A program made the translations under genes and the position numbers. 64,000 bases of DNA from a virus. The notes beneath the pieces were generated by a model, which was given only the letters and a program-made list of their open reading frames with translations, searched no databases and was not told the DNA's origin. Of this stretch, positions 22,573 to 27,953 are shown one piece after another; position 1 is the first letter of the stretch; every line of letters starts with the position of its first letter. The stretch covers positions 1-64,000 of IMG/VR virus record IMGVR_UViG_3300010396_000007; one strand, given 5' to 3'.

Positions 22573-22914
22573 ATGGATTTTAATGAATATCAGCGGCAAG
22601 CCAACGAGCTTGCAACTTATCCCCAAGTCGGAACTAATCTAGCATACCCGGCTCTGGGACTTGCCGGTGAAGCTGGTGAAGCAGCCGATAAGATTAAGAA
22701 GACATGGCGCAATCAAGGTTTAATGAGCGCCAACGGATATAGCGCAACTCAGAAACTCGAACTTGCTAAAGAAGTAGGAGATGTGTTATGGTACATAGCA
22801 GCAATCGCAATGGAACTTGGGATTCCTATGGAGGAAATCGCTCAAATGAATTTGGACAAACTCCATGACCGCAGGAACCGAGGCGTTATCAAATCTGAGG
22901 GAGATAACCGTTGA
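22573..22914 (+). CDS. mazG: MazG-like nucleotide pyrophosphohydrolase
   Basis: The 113-aa protein has the MazG/all-alpha NTP pyrophosphatase core: NEYQRQANELATYP, GLAGEAGEAADKIKK (the E-x-x-E metal site) and LAKEVGDVLWYIAAIA (the E-x-x-D site). It hydrolyses (d)NTPs to monophosphates; in phages MazG can lower (p)ppGpp-linked starvation signalling or clean the nucleotide pool. It lies just upstream of exported proteins, and its ATGA-like stop overlaps the next start (TTG at 22911). Length is the usual single-domain size. Confidence 0.85.
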   Translation: MDFNEYQRQANELATYPQVGTNLAYPALGLAGEAGEAADKIKKTWRNQGLMSANGYSATQKLELAKEVGDVLWYIAAIAMELGIPMEEIAQMNLDKLHDRRNRGVIKSEGDNR

Positions 22915-23384
22915 AATTTAAAACACTTATCGCAGTCGCATTGTTAGCACTTTCATGTGCTGTTGGCAATGCCCAAATTAAATCAAAACCGGCAGTTAAG
23001 CTAAAGAGTTTTGCTGCACCAATTGGCGCAACGTATAGCTCAATTGTCGTTGCATGGCAGTTCACACCAAATGCACCACCTTGTTCATCTAGCGGAGTAT
23101 TGACGAACTGTATTGACGGTTTCAACACAACTATCGTTGTAGGTGGAACTACCGTTTACAGCGCTACCGCTGGTTACGGAACAGGCCAACTTAATCCTTC
23201 TGCTCTGGGATATACCTTTACACCAGCGGCAGGAGTCTCATTTGGAAACTACACTATCACTGTTACGACAGTAGGATATGATGGAGTCGGTAATCAAATC
23301 TTCTCTACTCCTGCTACGACAACACTAGCTGTAAATCTTACATCTCTTAACCCGCCAACTAACGTAACGGCAACAGGAAAGTAA
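22911..23384 (+). CDS. Exported fibronectin/Ig-like protein, 157 aa
   Basis: A signal peptide is clear (MKFKTLIAVALLALSCAVGNAQ). The mature protein is all-beta (SSIVVAWQFTPNAPP, FGNYTITVTTVGYDGVGNQIFS) and resembles a single FN3/Ig-like domain with a possible disulfide (PPCSSSGVLTNC). The start is a TTG overlapping mazG. An exported, non-structural beta-sandwich made early is unusual; it could change the cell surface, for instance against superinfection. Confidence 0.65.
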   Translation: MKFKTLIAVALLALSCAVGNAQIKSKPAVKLKSFAAPIGATYSSIVVAWQFTPNAPPCSSSGVLTNCIDGFNTTIVVGGTTVYSATAGYGTGQLNPSALGYTFTPAAGVSFGNYTITVTTVGYDGVGNQIFSTPATTTLAVNLTSLNPPTNVTATGK

Positions 23385-23684
23385 ATGAAAAAGTGGTTAC
23401 TTTGTAGCCTAATTATTTTAACCGGATGCGGGGGTTTGTCGAAGACACTTCCCCCGCCTTCAACTATAACAATTAACTGGCAAGATGGGAACCCAACCAT
23501 TCCTGCATGTGGCAGCTTTAACTGTAAATCAGGTTGGCAAATTTTAGACAACGGAAAACTTGAATCTCTCCCCCTTTCAACTACATCTTATATAGGAGTG
23601 GCATCTCATACGTATCAAATACGGGCTACCGGCTTAGATGGAAAAGGTAACCCGCTTTACTCTTCGTATGTAGCTGTCCCATGA
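23385..23684 (+). CDS. Lipoprotein with FN3-like domain, 99 aa
   Basis: MKKWLLCSLIILTGCGG is a type II signal peptide with lipobox LTGC. The mature part (STITINWQDGNPTIPACGSFNC, SHTYQIRATGLDGKGNPLYSSY) resembles the preceding protein's FN3-like fold and includes the same YTI-x-G-x-D-G-x-G-N motif, so the two look like relatives made by duplication. Expected location is the inner or outer membrane, facing the periplasm or outside. A superinfection-exclusion role is inference. Confidence 0.7.
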   Translation: MKKWLLCSLIILTGCGGLSKTLPPPSTITINWQDGNPTIPACGSFNCKSGWQILDNGKLESLPLSTTSYIGVASHTYQIRATGLDGKGNPLYSSYVAVP

Positions 23685-23691
23685 GGAGAAC

Positions 23692-24138
23692 ATGGATATT
23701 CTAAAAGCGTTACTAAGTTTTTCTTTAGGATTGTCATTACTGTTGATGACATTCCTATTCCCGCTATTCAAGATTTGTTTCATTATATTCATGCTTGCGT
23801 ATTTGCTACATAAAACATATAAATACCGCAACTGGACTTTTGCGGTCCCTAGTGTGGGAGGAGTATTAAATCTGACCGCAATTCTTTCGAATGGTGGCAA
23901 AATGCCGGTGCTAGTCCCTCCGGGATTTCAACTTACTGGGATTGACCCTTGTCATTCTCTTCTAACTGCCGGGACACATGTTAAGATGCTCTGCGACATT
24001 TTCCCGCTCATGCATCTAGGTTTGTTTAGTGTAGGCGACGTGACAATCGCTGTAATTTGGCCCTTGACAGTCATAGGGTATGTATGCTACAGTAAATACA
24101 CTAAGAGAAAGGCAGCAAATGTCAGTTCACATTCTTAA
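23692..24138 (+). CDS. DUF5317-like integral membrane protein, 148 aa
   Basis: Three or four hydrophobic segments are visible (residues 5-30 and 33-45, then a long loop, then 110-135). The loop has VPSVGGVLNLTAILSNGGKMPV, GIDPCHSLLTAGT and LGLFSVGDV, matching the uncharacterised DUF5317 family as I recall it. The protein is probably in the inner membrane. It lies between the lipoprotein and the Prs-like gene, and its 3' end contains the promoter for the latter. Function unknown. Confidence 0.65.
   Translation: MDILKALLSFSLGLSLLLMTFLFPLFKICFIIFMLAYLLHKTYKYRNWTFAVPSVGGVLNLTAILSNGGKMPVLVPPGFQLTGIDPCHSLLTAGTHVKMLCDIFPLMHLGLFSVGDVTIAVIWPLTVIGYVCYSKYTKRKAANVSSHS
24064..24093 (+). promoter_or_regulatory. 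Sigma70-like promoter before the Prs-like gene
   Basis: TTGACA (24064-24069), an 18-bp spacer ending TGC, and TACAGT (24088-24093) lie inside the end of the membrane-protein gene. Transcription would start near 24100, leaving a short leader before AGAAAGG and the ATG at 24119. It would express the NAD-related operon separately. Confidence 0.6.
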
Positions 24139-24940
24139 CGGTTACACCGTCATTCCTTACAAGAGCTTCAAGTTCTCCGGGGGCGAGATTCAAGTAAAGC
24201 TCGCTCCAGCAAATATGGAATACAGCGCAGACAAACCAGTTGTGTTCCATGCTACCATTACTAGCGCTGATGACCTTATGGAATTGGCCCTTGTGGTAGA
24301 CGCGGTGAAGCGATTCTTCAATCAGCCAATCAAGACACAGTTGTACCTTCCCTACATGCCATATGCGCGTCAAGACCGTGTATGCGCTAAAGGTGAAGCA
24401 CTATCTCTTCGTGTGGCCGCAACTTTCATTAACTCCCTTGAATTTGACAAGGTTACGGTAGTGGACCCTCACAGTGATGTGACACCGGCTTTACTTAACA
24501 ACTGCTCTGTCACTGACATAGTTGAGATTTTTGCCACTCGTATGCATCACTTTGCTCCAATTGGGAACACTGTGTTGGTATCCCCGGATGCAGGAGCAAT
24601 TAAGAAGGTCCTGAAGCTTGCACAATTTCTCAAATTGAGAATGATTCAAGCAGAGAAGATTCGCAATCCTATGGATGGTGAAATTACCGGCACGAAGGTT
24701 CACACAGACCACCTTGGATTAAAACCAGTTCTAGTAGTGGATGATATCTGCGATGGTGGGCGTACCTTTACCGAGCTTGCTAAAGAGCTTTCCCATAAGA
24801 CGGATGGAAAGTTGAATCTTTACGTCACCCATGGCATCTTTAGTAAAGGACTAGAACCGTTGCTGGAATGGTACGACAAAATCTATTGTCCATATGTGTT
24901 CCCCGGCGTTGAACAGAACGAGAAGTTGGTGAGAATATGA
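24119..24940 (+). CDS. PRPP synthetase-family enzyme (Prs-like; possible ADP-ribose pyrophosphate synthetase)
   Basis: Family marks: YARQDR (82-87), DPHSD (116-120), VSPDAGA (154-160) and the PRPP loop VVDDICDGGRTF (206-217). The 273-aa protein is shorter than bacterial Prs (about 315 aa) and lacks the PRPP synthetase N-terminal segment in part. Prs makes PRPP from ribose-5-phosphate and ATP. Next to the NAMPT-like gene it supplies PRPP for NAD+ salvage or, as reported for phage NARP1, forms ADP-ribose pyrophosphate to rebuild NAD+ after a host defence has depleted it. Which substrate is used cannot be told by eye. It has its own promoter; ATGA overlap follows. Confidence 0.85.
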   Translation: MSVHILNGYTVIPYKSFKFSGGEIQVKLAPANMEYSADKPVVFHATITSADDLMELALVVDAVKRFFNQPIKTQLYLPYMPYARQDRVCAKGEALSLRVAATFINSLEFDKVTVVDPHSDVTPALLNNCSVTDIVEIFATRMHHFAPIGNTVLVSPDAGAIKKVLKLAQFLKLRMIQAEKIRNPMDGEITGTKVHTDHLGLKPVLVVDDICDGGRTFTELAKELSHKTDGKLNLYVTHGIFSKGLEPLLEWYDKIYCPYVFPGVEQNEKLVRI

Positions 24941-25254
24941 GAGAAATGAAAACATTGCAACAGCCATCAAGTAAACGATTTATCTATACCCTCATGGGAT
25001 TTATAGTTTCTTGGTGTATCTTTGCTGGCGTTATCGGTTGTGAAGTGAGTGCTGTAGCTACAGTGAAAACGAATAATCCAAATATGAAAGTGGACTTCCT
25101 TTTCGAACATGAGGGCTGCCGCGTCTATAGATTTTCAGATAACGGCAACGATCACTACTACGCCAAGTGTGCAAATGGATCATTTACGTCTAGTGAAATA
25201 CCGCAAGGTAAGACAACTAGACCAGAAGAAATTCCGACAGGAGAAACAAATTGA
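24937..25254 (+). CDS. Membrane-anchored or lipoprotein-like small protein (DUF4884-like), 105 aa
   Basis: An N-terminal hydrophobic stretch (YTLMGFIVSWCIFAGVIGC, with a lipobox-like AGVIGC) is followed by VDFLFEHEGCRVYRFSDNGNDHYYAKC, which resembles the DUF4884 pattern. It could be a lipoprotein or membrane-anchored domain with a disulfide-type Cys pair. It is inserted between the Prs-like and NAMPT-like genes and coupled to both (ATGA and TTG overlaps), so it may have a role with them, or be a passenger. Confidence 0.6.
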   Translation: MREMKTLQQPSSKRFIYTLMGFIVSWCIFAGVIGCEVSAVATVKTNNPNMKVDFLFEHEGCRVYRFSDNGNDHYYAKCANGSFTSSEIPQGKTTRPEEIPTGETN

Positions 25255-26723
25255 ATATCTTTCCATTACACGCAACAGATTTCTACAAGACTGGACACTA
25301 TGCCCAGTACCCTGCTGGCAGTGAGTTTGTCTATGAGAACTTCACTTGTCGGTCATCCAAGTTCTTCGAACACGCTATCGGCTATGACAGCACAGTAGTG
25401 TTCTTTGGACTCCAATATGTCCTGAAGAACCTTCTTGTGGATATTTGGAACAAGAATTTCTTTGAAAAGCCTATTGAGGAAGTCGTTGCGAAGTATGAGC
25501 GCCGTATGACGGGAGCGCTTGGACCGGGACTGGTGACCATGGAACATATCCGTGAGTTGCACGCTCTAGGATACCTACCTATCCGCATCAAGGCTCTCCC
25601 TGAAGGTTCGCACGTCGATATCAGGGTGCCTCTCTTTACCATTGAGAACACCGTAGCAGGATTCGGATGGGTTGTGGGATACCTTGAAACGGCCATCTCA
25701 GCCGAGCTTTGGCAGACTATTACATCGGCCACTTCAGCCTATGAGTATCGCAGGATGCTGGACATGTATGCAGATGCTACGGGGGCCGATAAGAGCTTCG
25801 TGCCGTGGCAGGGACATGACTTCTCAGCGCGCGGTATGGTTGGAGTCATAGGTGGAGCAGCAAGCGGTATGGGTCATCTGACCAGTTTTACAGGCACAGA
25901 TACAGTCCTTGCATTGGACTTCCTTGAGGAATACTATCGTGGAGGAGAAACATTCCTTGGAGGGTCTGTGCCTGCTACGGAGCATTCCGTGATGTGCATG
26001 GGCACCGAAGACGAAGAGATTTACACATTCAGTCGCTTGATTACTGAGGTTTATCCAAGCGGAGTTGTCAGTATCGTATCTGATACGTGGGACTTCTGGA
26101 CAGTTATTACCAGCTTCACACGTCAATTGAAATCGGAAATCCTTGACCGTAAAGGTAAAGTAGTGTTCCGCCCCGACTCTGGGGACCCTGTGAAGATTAT
26201 TTGTGGGGACCCGGAAGCTGAGAAAGGCTCTCCTGCTTTCAAAGGAGCGGTTGAATGTCTCTGGGAAATCTTTGGTGGGACTATCACTAGCAAGGGTTAT
26301 AAGGTCCTTGACTCGCATGTTGGCCTTATCTACGGGGACAGCATCTCGCTTACTCGTGCTGATGCGATTCTTAGTGGATTGCAGGAGAAGGGCTTTGCCT
26401 CGTCTAACATCGTGTTTGGGATTGGCAGCTACACATATCAGCATGTGACCCGCGATACTCTTGGTACTGCTATCAAGGCGACTTGGGGGCAGGTAAACGG
26501 GAAGGGACGTGAGCTTTTCAAGAAGCCGAAGACTGACAACGGTATGAAGAATTCCGCTTGTGGTCTTCTGAGAATTGAGCGCGAGCATGGGCAGTTTGTA
26601 CTCTATGACCGTCAAACGCGCGAGCAGGAACAAAAAGGACTCTTGACAACTGTGTTCGAAGATGGTAAGATAGTTAAAGAATACAGCATCGTAGAGATTC
26701 GTGACACGGTTTTGAAAGGATAG
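25251..26723 (+). CDS. nadV: Nicotinamide phosphoribosyltransferase-family enzyme (NadV/NAMPT-like)
   Basis: The 490-aa protein matches NAMPT from end to end: DFYKTGHYAQYP at 10-21, FVPWQGHDFSARGM (183-196), the PATEHSV segment with His245 at the position of human His247, DTWDFW, and FRPDSGDP. It normally forms nicotinamide mononucleotide from nicotinamide and PRPP. Phage members in NARP1 instead join ADP-ribose pyrophosphate with nicotinamide to give NAD+ in one step. The start is a TTG overlapping the upstream stop. A promoter at 26643 lies in its 3' end, and its stop shares one base with tRNA-Arg. Confidence 0.9.
   Translation: MNIFPLHATDFYKTGHYAQYPAGSEFVYENFTCRSSKFFEHAIGYDSTVVFFGLQYVLKNLLVDIWNKNFFEKPIEEVVAKYERRMTGALGPGLVTMEHIRELHALGYLPIRIKALPEGSHVDIRVPLFTIENTVAGFGWVVGYLETAISAELWQTITSATSAYEYRRMLDMYADATGADKSFVPWQGHDFSARGMVGVIGGAASGMGHLTSFTGTDTVLALDFLEEYYRGGETFLGGSVPATEHSVMCMGTEDEEIYTFSRLITEVYPSGVVSIVSDTWDFWTVITSFTRQLKSEILDRKGKVVFRPDSGDPVKIICGDPEAEKGSPAFKGAVECLWEIFGGTITSKGYKVLDSHVGLIYGDSISLTRADAILSGLQEKGFASSNIVFGIGSYTYQHVTRDTLGTAIKATWGQVNGKGRELFKKPKTDNGMKNSACGLLRIEREHGQFVLYDRQTREQEQKGLLTTVFEDGKIVKEYSIVEIRDTVLKG
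26643..26671 (+). promoter_or_regulatory. Sigma70-like promoter before tRNA-Arg and the AAA+ gene
   Basis: TTGACA (26643-26648), 17 bp ending TGG, and TAAGAT (26666-26671) match the window's promoter motif. The start near 26678 lies 45 bases before the tRNA and would transcribe the tRNA together with the AAA+ ATPase gene. Confidence 0.6.
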
Positions 26724-26799
26724 GGCGCGTAACTCAGCGGACTAGAGTCACGAGCTTCTACCTCGTTGGCCGCAGGTTCGAATCCTGCCGTGCCCTCCA
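26723..26799 (+). tRNA. tRNA-Arg (anticodon TCT)
   Basis: Seven-bp acceptor GGGCGCG/CGTGCCC (one G-T pair), D-arm ACTC...GAGT, anticodon stem ACGAG/CTCGT with loop CTTCTAC (anticodon TCT, reading AGA), T-arm GCAGG-TTCGAAT-CCTGC, then discriminator T and encoded CCA. It is the only tRNA on the plus strand, apart from the cluster at 30.8-31.5 kb. It directly follows the nadV stop. Confidence 0.92.
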
Positions 26800-26816: not shown

Positions 26817-27953
26817 ATGGGAATCCAAACTGACAACGTAACATTCTTTCGCAATGATGATAACTTCATGCTAGGGAATGACAAGCCATCTAAACGCTAT
26901 CCAACCCTTCCTGCTGCGACGTATGTATTACGTTTCTCCCCGGAAGTTGGATTTTACCTTGAATTAACTGATGACTTCGATTTGCCTAAGAAACTTTATG
27001 GTAATCTCGAAAAGAAAGCTGACCGCATTCTTAATACCTTCAGTACACGTCCGGGGACAACCGGAGTACTCTTGTGCGGAGAGAAGGGAAGTGGTAAAAC
27101 TCTTCTGACGAAGCTGATTGCAACTAAGGCGCGCGATACTGGAATGCCGACCATTCTGGTTAACTTCGCAGCACAGGGAGATTCATTTAATACCTTCCTT
27201 GCGAAGATTGACCAACCCGCTGTTGTACTCTTTGATGAGTTTGAGAAGACGTATGATGAAAACGAGCAGCAGGGATTGCTGACGCTGTTGGATGGTGTGT
27301 TTTCGAGTAAGAAGCTTTGCCTGCTTACTTCTAACGAATTCAAGCAGATTAATAGCCACATGAAGAATCGTCCGGGACGTGTGTTCTATTACCTCAACTT
27401 TGAGGGATTGGATAGCCAGTTCGTTAAGGAATATGGAGCGGACAACCTCAAGAACCCAAATCATCTTGCAAGTCTTCAAGTGCTTGGTAATCTGGTAAAG
27501 CCGTTGAACTTCGACATGCTTCAGGCTGTTGTCGAAGAAGCTAACCGCTACAATGAGCCGCCAATGGAAACTTTGGACATGTTGAACGTCCGGGTATCTG
27601 GGTATGCTGACACCTTCTTGTATGAGCTTATCATTCCGGGTCGCAAGTTGACGAAGGGTAATGAAAAGGAAGTTCGTTGTAACCCAATCAACGGTTGTCG
27701 TCTGGCGTATTATTATTCTAAGCCAGCCAAAGAAGGTTCGAAAAAGAAGCCTACCATTGAGTATGACGAGGCGCAATTTGAATCGAAAGACTTGGTGGCT
27801 TTGAATGCGGACCTTGGTTCCTATGAGTATAAAAACGAAAAGGGTGAAATCCTGAAGCTCACACTGAAGCCAATCTCTGCATACAGTAGTGGTATGGATA
27901 AGGTAAAAGAACTTGTGGGGGACAGTGTTAAGGACCCCAATGACGACCTTTAA
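26817..27953 (+). CDS. AAA+ ATPase
   Basis: The ATG at 26817 follows GAAAGGAAACAA and is preferred to an in-frame start that would lie inside the tRNA. The 378-aa protein has Walker A GEKGSGKT (88-95), Walker B VVLFDEFE (136-143), sensor-1 TSN (171-173) and arginine-finger candidates (RPGR, 185-188). This matches phage AAA+ ATPases that act in DNA metabolism or protein remodelling. Residues 230-378 have no recognised motif. It is the last gene of the plus arm. Confidence 0.85.
   Translation: MGIQTDNVTFFRNDDNFMLGNDKPSKRYPTLPAATYVLRFSPEVGFYLELTDDFDLPKKLYGNLEKKADRILNTFSTRPGTTGVLLCGEKGSGKTLLTKLIATKARDTGMPTILVNFAAQGDSFNTFLAKIDQPAVVLFDEFEKTYDENEQQGLLTLLDGVFSSKKLCLLTSNEFKQINSHMKNRPGRVFYYLNFEGLDSQFVKEYGADNLKNPNHLASLQVLGNLVKPLNFDMLQAVVEEANRYNEPPMETLDMLNVRVSGYADTFLYELIIPGRKLTKGNEKEVRCNPINGCRLAYYYSKPAKEGSKKKPTIEYDEAQFESKDLVALNADLGSYEYKNEKGEILKLTLKPISAYSSGMDKVKELVGDSVKDPNDDL

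What the first reader, a model, noticed from the sequence alone, without database searches (positions are those of the whole stretch)
24119..26723. Prs-like + membrane/lipoprotein + NAMPT-like cassette: a possible NARP1-type NAD+ rebuilding system
A PRPP-synthetase-family gene and a NAMPT-family gene stand together with their own promoter. This gene pair is the architecture of NARP1, in which a Prs-like enzyme forms ADP-ribose pyrophosphate and a NAMPT-like enzyme joins it to nicotinamide to restore NAD+ after Thoeris- or Sir2-type defences destroy it. Ordinary NMN salvage is the alternative. The 105-aa DUF4884-like protein coupled between them is not a known part of the pathway and could be an added component.
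Basis: partly seen in the sequence, partly recalled or inferred. Interest (0 to 1): 0.8.

Follow-up and report, generated by a model that had tools for sequence, protein, structure and literature searches.

The report
Phage NARP1-type NAD+ rebuilding gene pair
An uncultivated phage carries a two-enzyme pair that very probably rebuilds NAD+ from its breakdown products after bacterial defences destroy it (the known NARP1 route); a small lipoprotein gene sits between the two enzymes but does not look like part of the machine.

Summary
Sequence evidence strongly supports NARP1 over NMN salvage. The NAMPT-like protein is closest in the PDB to phage Namat (516 bits; human NAMPT 224), keeps its nicotinamide and ribose contacts, and carries the Namat-only adenine-clamp motif (GSYTYQHVTRD; the His also occurs in the biochemically active DyoEdafos Namat). 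The Prs-like protein has Adps-type motifs (DPHSDV, DDICDGGRTF), not those of PRPP synthetases, though an AU test did not reject joining it to Prs. The pair is adjacent in all 76 assessable related loci. No NMN adenylyltransferase gene was found in the record. DUF4884 is probably a passenger: the nearest relatives lack it, and 16 other viral copies lie away from NARP1. The 'own promoter' is only a consensus match. In passing: in other phages the Adps-Namat gap often holds genes predicted to act on ADP-ribose derivatives (macro, NADAR, deoxyribosyltransferase-like). New member of a known kind; activity untested.

The parts
24119..24940 (+). Adps-like gene (predicted ADP-ribose pyrophosphate synthetase; PRPP-synthetase fold), 273 aa
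   Evidence: 70% identical to the sibling phage protein
24464..24481 (+). DPHSDV motif (residues 116-121), Adps type; PRPP synthetases have DLH(A/T)..(I/L)QGF-type motifs here
24737..24769 (+). VDDICDGGRTF (residues 207-217), phosphate-binding loop of Adps type; PRPP synthetases have VDDMIDT(G/A)GT or similar
24937..25254 (+). DUF4884 small lipoprotein, 105 aa: one membrane helix, lipobox VIGC at Cys35, two conserved cysteines (61, 78) in the mature part; occupies the gap between the two enzymes but is not a conserved part of the system
25251..26723 (+). Namat-like gene (predicted nicotinamide ADP-ribose transferase), 490 aa, TTG start
25359..25364 (+). K37-F38: predicted selectivity-clamp loop residues (Lys then Phe, the Bas63-type arrangement described in PMC12774641)
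26424..26456 (+). GSYTYQHVTRD (residues 392-402): Namat selectivity-clamp helix motif; Y394 and H398 take the place of F392 and Y396 of SPbetaL1 Namat
24064..24093 (+). sigma-70-like promoter match (TTGACA-18-TACAGT, TG before -10); not above chance for the region and not seen in the sibling
26723..26799 (+). tRNA-Arg (tct) directly after the pair; same place in the sibling phage
22573..22914 (+). MazG-like pyrophosphohydrolase, conserved upstream neighbour
26817..27953 (+). AAA ATPase (phrog_2376), conserved downstream neighbour

Best explanation
The cassette is a phage NARP1 pathway. The Prs-like enzyme (Adps) uses ATP to put a pyrophosphate on ADP-ribose, giving ADPR-PP. The NAMPT-like enzyme (Namat) then joins nicotinamide to ADPR-PP, giving NAD+ in one step. 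Both inputs are what TIR-, SIR2- or SEFIR-type NADase defences leave behind, so the phage can refill NAD+ during infection and keep replicating. Shown here: gene content, the Namat clamp motif and conserved catalytic core, Adps-type motifs, and conservation of the pair. Inferred from experiments on homologues (SPbetaL1, DyoEdafos, ICP1, Paenibacillus foliorum): the reactions and the anti-defence role. The DUF4884 lipoprotein between the genes most likely does something unrelated in the cell envelope and is only co-transcribed; this too is inferred.
For: (1) Namat side. Best PDB match is SPbetaL1 Namat 9w5x/9w5w, 516 bits, against 224 for human NAMPT. Aligned to it, D10, Y12, F191, S192, R194, D217, A242, R307, D309, G362, D363, G392, S393, T400, R401 and D402 are identical. 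The published Namat signature GSX-phi-X-phi-X-phi-TRD (PMC12774641) is present as GSYTYQHVTRD, while phage and bacterial Nampts have GMGGGLLQ..TRD, GMGGALLQ..RD and similar. His at position 7 is in 7 of 77 related loci and in DyoEdafos Namat, which makes NAD+ in vitro (PMC13232231). H. ducreyi NadV, a lone gene on pNAD1 with no Adps, lies within the Namat branch but has GAQTYQRNTRD, with the clamp aromatics gone. Placing the window protein with Nampts is rejected (AU p 0.013). (2) Adps side. DPHSDV and DDICDGGRTF match the partners of Namat, including DyoEdafos and ICP1 NrsA, and differ from five PRPP synthetases; Prs rows form a 100/100 group apart from all Adps-like rows. (3) The pair is adjacent in all 76 of 80 related loci that could be judged and kept at the same site in the sibling genome. 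(4) No NMN adenylyltransferase-type (PF01467) and no Nudix (PF00293) gene was found in the record or four relatives, while both models ring in all 14 control genomes.
Against: No enzyme assay or plating test was done. Namats also make NMN from PRPP in vitro (PMC12774641), so sequence cannot exclude mixed use. The Adps tree is a deep, weakly resolved radiation: forcing window + sibling to join the Prs group is not rejected (AU p 0.31), so the Adps call rests on motifs and partnership more than on branching order. NCBIfam still scores the Prs-like protein as ribose-phosphate diphosphokinase (121 bits, cut-off 113). The record is not known to be complete, so an NMN adenylyltransferase could be missing from it.
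Confidence: 0.9

Rival explanations
1. Ordinary NMN salvage: the Prs-like enzyme makes PRPP, the NAMPT-like enzyme joins it to nicotinamide to give NMN, and the host's adenylyltransferase finishes NAD+.
For: Database names; Namats keep PRPP activity in vitro (PMC12774641); the 62%-identical bacterial homologue sits next to an NMN adenylyltransferase/ADP-ribose pyrophosphatase gene; joining the Prs-like protein to the PRPP synthetases is not rejected by the AU test (p 0.31).
Against: Adenine-clamp aromatics present; Adps-type motifs; no NMN adenylyltransferase found in the record or four relatives. True phage Nampts have other motifs; GAP32 has an NMN adenylyltransferase/Nudix neighbour and CcrSwift a Nudix neighbour, and neither shows a Prs-like gene in the stretch read.
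Confidence: 0.07
2. A three-part NARP1 variant in which the DUF4884 lipoprotein is a working component (for example scavenging or importing nicotinamide or ADP-ribose at the envelope).
For: It is coupled between the two genes; in a mycobacteriophage the same gap holds RyDEP, a proven partner (PMC13232231); one relative in another phage sits near a NADAR gene.
Against: The sibling has an unrelated 89-aa gene there and the 75%- and 68%-identical relatives have none. All 16 other viral DUF4884 loci lack NARP1 genes within 4 kb, and 7 of 8 whole records tested lack Namat. The protein is predicted to be exported (lipobox in the aligned relatives), while the pathway is cytosolic. Its predicted fold matches nothing of known function.
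Confidence: 0.04
3. The genes are host DNA or decayed passengers rather than a working phage system.
For: A 62% homologue is on bacterial DNA filed under 'Acinetobacter phage MD-2021a'.
Against: All frames are intact, the catalytic residues are kept, and a syntenic sibling genome keeps both genes at 70-77% identity between the same MazG and AAA ATPase neighbours.
Confidence: 0.01

Closest known systems
NARP1 (Adps + Namat) of phages SPbetaL1, Bas63, ICP1 (NrsAB) and DyoEdafos
   Same: Gene order Adps then Namat, close coupling, Namat clamp motif, catalytic core, Adps-type phosphate loop
   Different: Namat only about 50% identical to ICP1 and DyoEdafos Namat, Adps 42-43% identical to ICP1 over 78% of its length; His in place of Tyr at the second clamp aromatic (also in DyoEdafos); a DUF4884 lipoprotein gene in the gap
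DyoEdafos three-gene NARP1 operon (Adps, RyDEP, Namat)
   Same: A small extra gene between Adps and Namat
   Different: RyDEP is a cADPR glycosidase (RyR domain); the window's extra protein is a predicted exported lipoprotein with no detected similarity to it
NAMPT/NadV salvage (phage NadV with NadM; H. ducreyi NadV; Xanthomonas NAMPT)
   Same: Same NAMPT fold and nicotinamide-binding residues
   Different: The ones examined lack the Namat aromatic clamp motif, and no Adps partner lies in the stretches read
PRPP synthetase (E. coli Prs)
   Same: Same PRPP-synthetase family, RQDR loop kept
   Different: Lacks DLHA..IQGF and DDMIDTGGT; has DPHSDV and DDICDGGRTF; 273 against 315 residues

Membership tests
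NARP1 | Namat: NAMPT-family protein with selectivity-clamp motif GSX-phi-X-phi-X-phi-TRD, aromatic at positions 3 and 7 | tested here: met
   GSYTYQHVTRD; Tyr at 3, His at 7. The His variant occurs in 7 of 77 relatives and in the active DyoEdafos enzyme
NARP1 | Namat clamp loop: third residue Arg, or Lys/Tyr followed by a stacking residue | tested here: met
   Position of SPbetaL1 R40 is K37, followed by F38; loop alignment is less certain because loop length varies
NARP1 | Conserved Nampt-type catalytic core (F189, D215, R306 and others of SPbetaL1) | tested here: met
   Nicotinamide and ribose contacts identical
NARP1 | Adps: Prs-family protein distinct from PRPP synthetases | tested here: met
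   Adps-type motifs and position outside the Prs group; caveat: the AU test does not reject joining it to Prs (p 0.31)
NARP1 | adps and namat adjacent and kept together | tested here: met
   76 of 76 assessable loci of 80
NARP1 | ATP + ADP-ribose gives ADPR-PP; ADPR-PP + nicotinamide gives NAD+ | not testable with these tools
   needs enzyme assay
NARP1 | Overcomes NAD+-depleting defences | not testable with these tools
   needs plating or viability test
NAMPT/NMN salvage | Nampt-type motif at the clamp position (GMGGGLLQ..TRD or similar) | tested here: not met
NAMPT/NMN salvage | Phage-encoded NMN adenylyltransferase | tested here: not met
   No PF01467 match in the held 98.7-kb record or four relatives; control genomes ring
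PRPP synthetase (Prs) | DLH(A/T)..(I/L)QGF-type and DD(M/I/L)(I/V)D(T/S)(G/A)GT motifs | tested here: not met

The most novel reading that the evidence does not exclude
NARP1 is a modular operon: the gap between Adps and Namat is a recurrent landing site for accessory genes, and in several phages these are predicted to act on ADP-ribose derivatives (macro domain, NADAR, nucleoside-deoxyribosyltransferase-like, and the published RyDEP), so that ADP-ribose freed from immune signals or ADP-ribosylated targets is fed into NAD+ rebuilding. The window phage would carry an unrelated lipoprotein in that slot.
Probability: 0.4. Interest if true: 0.6.

Novelty: new member of a known kind. Interest (0 to 1): 0.38.

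Why it matters
It adds an uncultivated phage lineage (four relatives at 66-77% Namat identity, two of them near 99 kb) to the phages that rebuild NAD+, and shows that residue-level tests separate NARP1 from NMN salvage where database names do not (both proteins are still named as Prs and nicotinate/nicotinamide phosphoribosyltransferase). The side observation on the Adps-Namat gap gives a short list of candidate ADP-ribose-feeding or signal-degrading enzymes that can be assayed together with NARP1, as was done for RyDEP.

Tried and rejected
DUF4884 as a NARP1 part: rejected on comparative grounds; structure prediction (mean pLDDT 75, 13 sequences) and fold searches gave no functional match, and the two papers in the library that mention DUF4884 were found only as search hits and not read. 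Dedicated promoter: a consensus match only. Longer Prs-like start at 24080: rejected (Shine-Dalgarno and sibling start). Other ADP-ribose genes: none of the macro, NADAR, deoxyribosyltransferase-like or RyR queries hit the record. PADLOC has no relevant model hit (one weak PsyrT match, E 3e-4, over 38 residues). The original NARP1 paper (Osterman et al. 2024, Nature) is not in the library, so its Adps residue analysis could not be used; the Adps motifs here come from my own alignment. The first AU test split the window from its sibling (p 0.094) and was replaced by one that keeps them together (p 0.31); neither rejects the join to Prs.
Full report
WHAT IS THERE. The window is the first 64 kb of a 98,677-bp IMG/VR virus record. 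It reads as a tailed phage: UvsX/RecA-like recombinase, helicase, primase/helicase, ribonucleotide reductase, SU10-like portal. The cassette holds a Prs-like gene (24119-24940), a DUF4884 gene (24937-25254) and a NAMPT-like gene (25251-26723), with stop and start codons overlapping (ATGA, ATTGA), followed at once by a tRNA-Arg. Family matches are far above chance. The Prs-like start is ATG 24119, after GAAAGG, overlapping the end of the preceding membrane-protein gene (DUF5317).

SIBLING GENOME. A second record of 98,604 bp (G001; L002, L148) keeps the same order around the pair: recombinase, MazG, Adps, a small gene, Namat, tRNA-Arg, AAA ATPase, with Adps 70% and Namat 77% identical. Its small gene is an unrelated 89-aa protein without a Pfam match over cut-off. 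Three envelope-type genes of the window (22911-24138) have no counterpart between MazG and Adps in the sibling. So the two enzymes are stable and the small genes around and between them turn over.

NAMAT TEST. PMC12774641 solved SPbetaL1 Namat with nicotinamide and NAD+, and showed that a selectivity clamp makes it use ADPR-PP. The clamp is a helix motif GSX-phi-X-phi-X-phi-TRD, aromatic at positions 3 and 7, plus a variable loop. The window protein's best PDB match is that enzyme (516 bits; human NAMPT 224). I transferred the contacts through the printed alignment: 16 of the 20 contact positions are identical, A362 is Ser364, F392 is Tyr394, Y396 is His398, and R40 is Lys37 followed by Phe38, the arrangement the paper describes for Bas63. 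His at position 7 is a minority variant: 77 of 80 related IMG/VR Namats show the motif, with Y 59, H 7, F 7 and M 4 at that position. DyoEdafos Namat, which makes NAD+ with its Adps in vitro (PMC13232231), has GSFTYQHNTRD, so His is compatible with function. Nampts from Klebsiella phage BL02, Vibrio phage VS2, GAP32, CcrSwift, Burkholderia and Methylosinus lack the motif and form a separate 100/100 group; joining the window protein to them is rejected (AU p 0.013). A useful contrast is NadV of H. ducreyi plasmid pNAD1: it lies inside the Namat branch and has no Adps partner on its plasmid, and its motif is GAQTYQRNTRD, with both aromatics lost.

ADPS TEST. The Prs-like protein is 273 residues long against 315 for E. 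coli Prs and aligns to Prs through the RQDR loop. In an alignment of 31 Adps-like partners of Namat and 5 PRPP synthetases, the PRPP synthetases have DLH(A/T)..(I/L)QGF-type and DD(M/I/L)(I/V)D(T/S)(G/A)GT motifs, while the Adps-like set has a .HS motif in place of DLH(A/T) and mostly DDICDGG.TF. The window has DPHSDV and DDICDGGRTF; ICP1 NrsA and DyoEdafos Adps have DPHSDV/DDICDGAASF and DPHSRR/DDICDGGGTF. In the tree the five Prs rows are split from all Adps-like rows at 100/100. The backbone within Adps is poorly resolved, and moving window + sibling next to Prs is not rejected (AU p 0.31), so the motifs and the partner gene carry the case. PF01467 (NMN adenylyltransferase type) and Nudix were not found in the record or four close relatives, so an NMN route would depend on the host for the last step.

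UNIT CONSERVATION. In 80 viral Namat loci chosen by similarity, Adps is directly upstream in 73 (45 without and 28 with a gap of more than 90 bases) and downstream in 3. Of the other four, three are cut by the contig end and the fourth (L143, the same contig as L006) has its Adps at the far end of that contig.

DUF4884. The protein has a signal helix and a lipobox (VIGC, Cys35), and two conserved cysteines in the mature part; 12 viral relatives aligned with it keep the lipobox cysteine. It is a predicted lipoprotein on the far side of the membrane from the pathway. Its relatives occur in coliphages of Drexlerviridae among others and in scattered viral contigs. None of 16 viral loci has NARP1 genes within 4 kb, and of eight whole records tested only G013 encodes Namat, about 8 kb away. 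AlphaFold2 gives a helix and a small beta-meander at modest confidence, with no functional match. I conclude that it is a passenger of the operon; its own function is unknown, and an envelope role such as superinfection exclusion is a guess.

BEYOND THE WINDOW: THE GAP AS A SLOT. In DyoEdafos the gap gene is RyDEP, which opens cADPR immune signals to ADP-ribose that NARP1 then uses (PMC13232231). In the survey the gap also held macro-domain genes (L132 and L134 over the Pfam cut-off; L135 and L073 by homology), nucleoside-deoxyribosyltransferase-like genes (L109, L111, L123; L102 as DUF1937), a NADAR gene (L123), and unrelated HNH endonucleases, HAD-like, MazG-like and lipoprotein genes. In 50 whole records, 6 of 23 Macro/NDT/NADAR matches fell in the gap, which is 0.39% of the bases; 0.09 were expected. 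The three families were chosen after being seen there. Dropping one hit per family still leaves 3 of 20 (binomial P about 6e-5), but relatedness among phages is not corrected, so this is a lead and not a result. Macro and NADAR domains as phage ADP-ribose processing enzymes are known (PMC9503650, PMC7824862). In a term search of the RyDEP paper I found no mention of them, and the main NARP1 paper could not be read.

VERDICT. A sound new member of NARP1 in an uncultivated phage lineage, with a lipoprotein gene in the middle that is probably a passenger. The biochemistry and anti-defence role are inferred from homologues.

Noticed in passing
L073, L102, L109, L111, L123, L132, L134, L135 (gap between Adps and Namat): The gap holds predicted ADP-ribose-type genes (macro, NADAR, nucleoside-deoxyribosyltransferase-like) in several phages: 6 of 23 such matches in 50 records lie in 0.39% of the bases. 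Families were picked after seeing them, so this needs an independent set.
   Followed up: partly
L006 331-2724 (same contig as L143), 276-aa insert after GIGSY: A Namat gene carries a probable intein placed exactly inside the selectivity-clamp motif (GSY^TYQYVTRD). The insert begins with Cys and ends in HN before Thr; NCBIfam matches an intein-containing radical SAM protein across it at 1e-11.
   Followed up: partly
record positions 79291-79546 (L028 15291-15546), outside the window: The phage encodes a permuted (two-piece type) tmRNA, Rfam RF04321, 72.8 bits against a cut-off of 47, next to a tRNA cluster. This may point to a host lineage with permuted tmRNA.
   Followed up: partly
L043 (CAKLQF020000015.1): A contig filed as 'Acinetobacter phage MD-2021a' looks like bacterial chromosome (siderophore transport, emrB) and holds an Adps-Namat pair next to an NMN adenylyltransferase/ADP-ribose pyrophosphatase gene: a bacterial NARP1-like cluster with clamp motif GSFTYNYLTRD.
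   Followed up: partly
L060 3828-5315 (H. ducreyi pNAD1 NadV): NadV of pNAD1 falls inside the Namat branch but has lost the clamp aromatics (GAQTYQRNTRD) and has no Adps partner on its plasmid: a possible reversion from ADPR-PP to PRPP use.
   Followed up: partly
window 22911-24138: Three envelope-type genes (a secreted protein, a lipoprotein, a DUF5317 membrane protein) directly upstream of Adps are missing between MazG and Adps in the sibling genome.
   Followed up: no
L103, L129, L147: Reversed gene order: Adps lies downstream of Namat in three of 80 loci.
   Followed up: no
L027 5989-7224: A DUF4884 relative (41% identical) sits about 0.4 kb upstream of a NADAR gene in a contig without NARP1.
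   Followed up: partly
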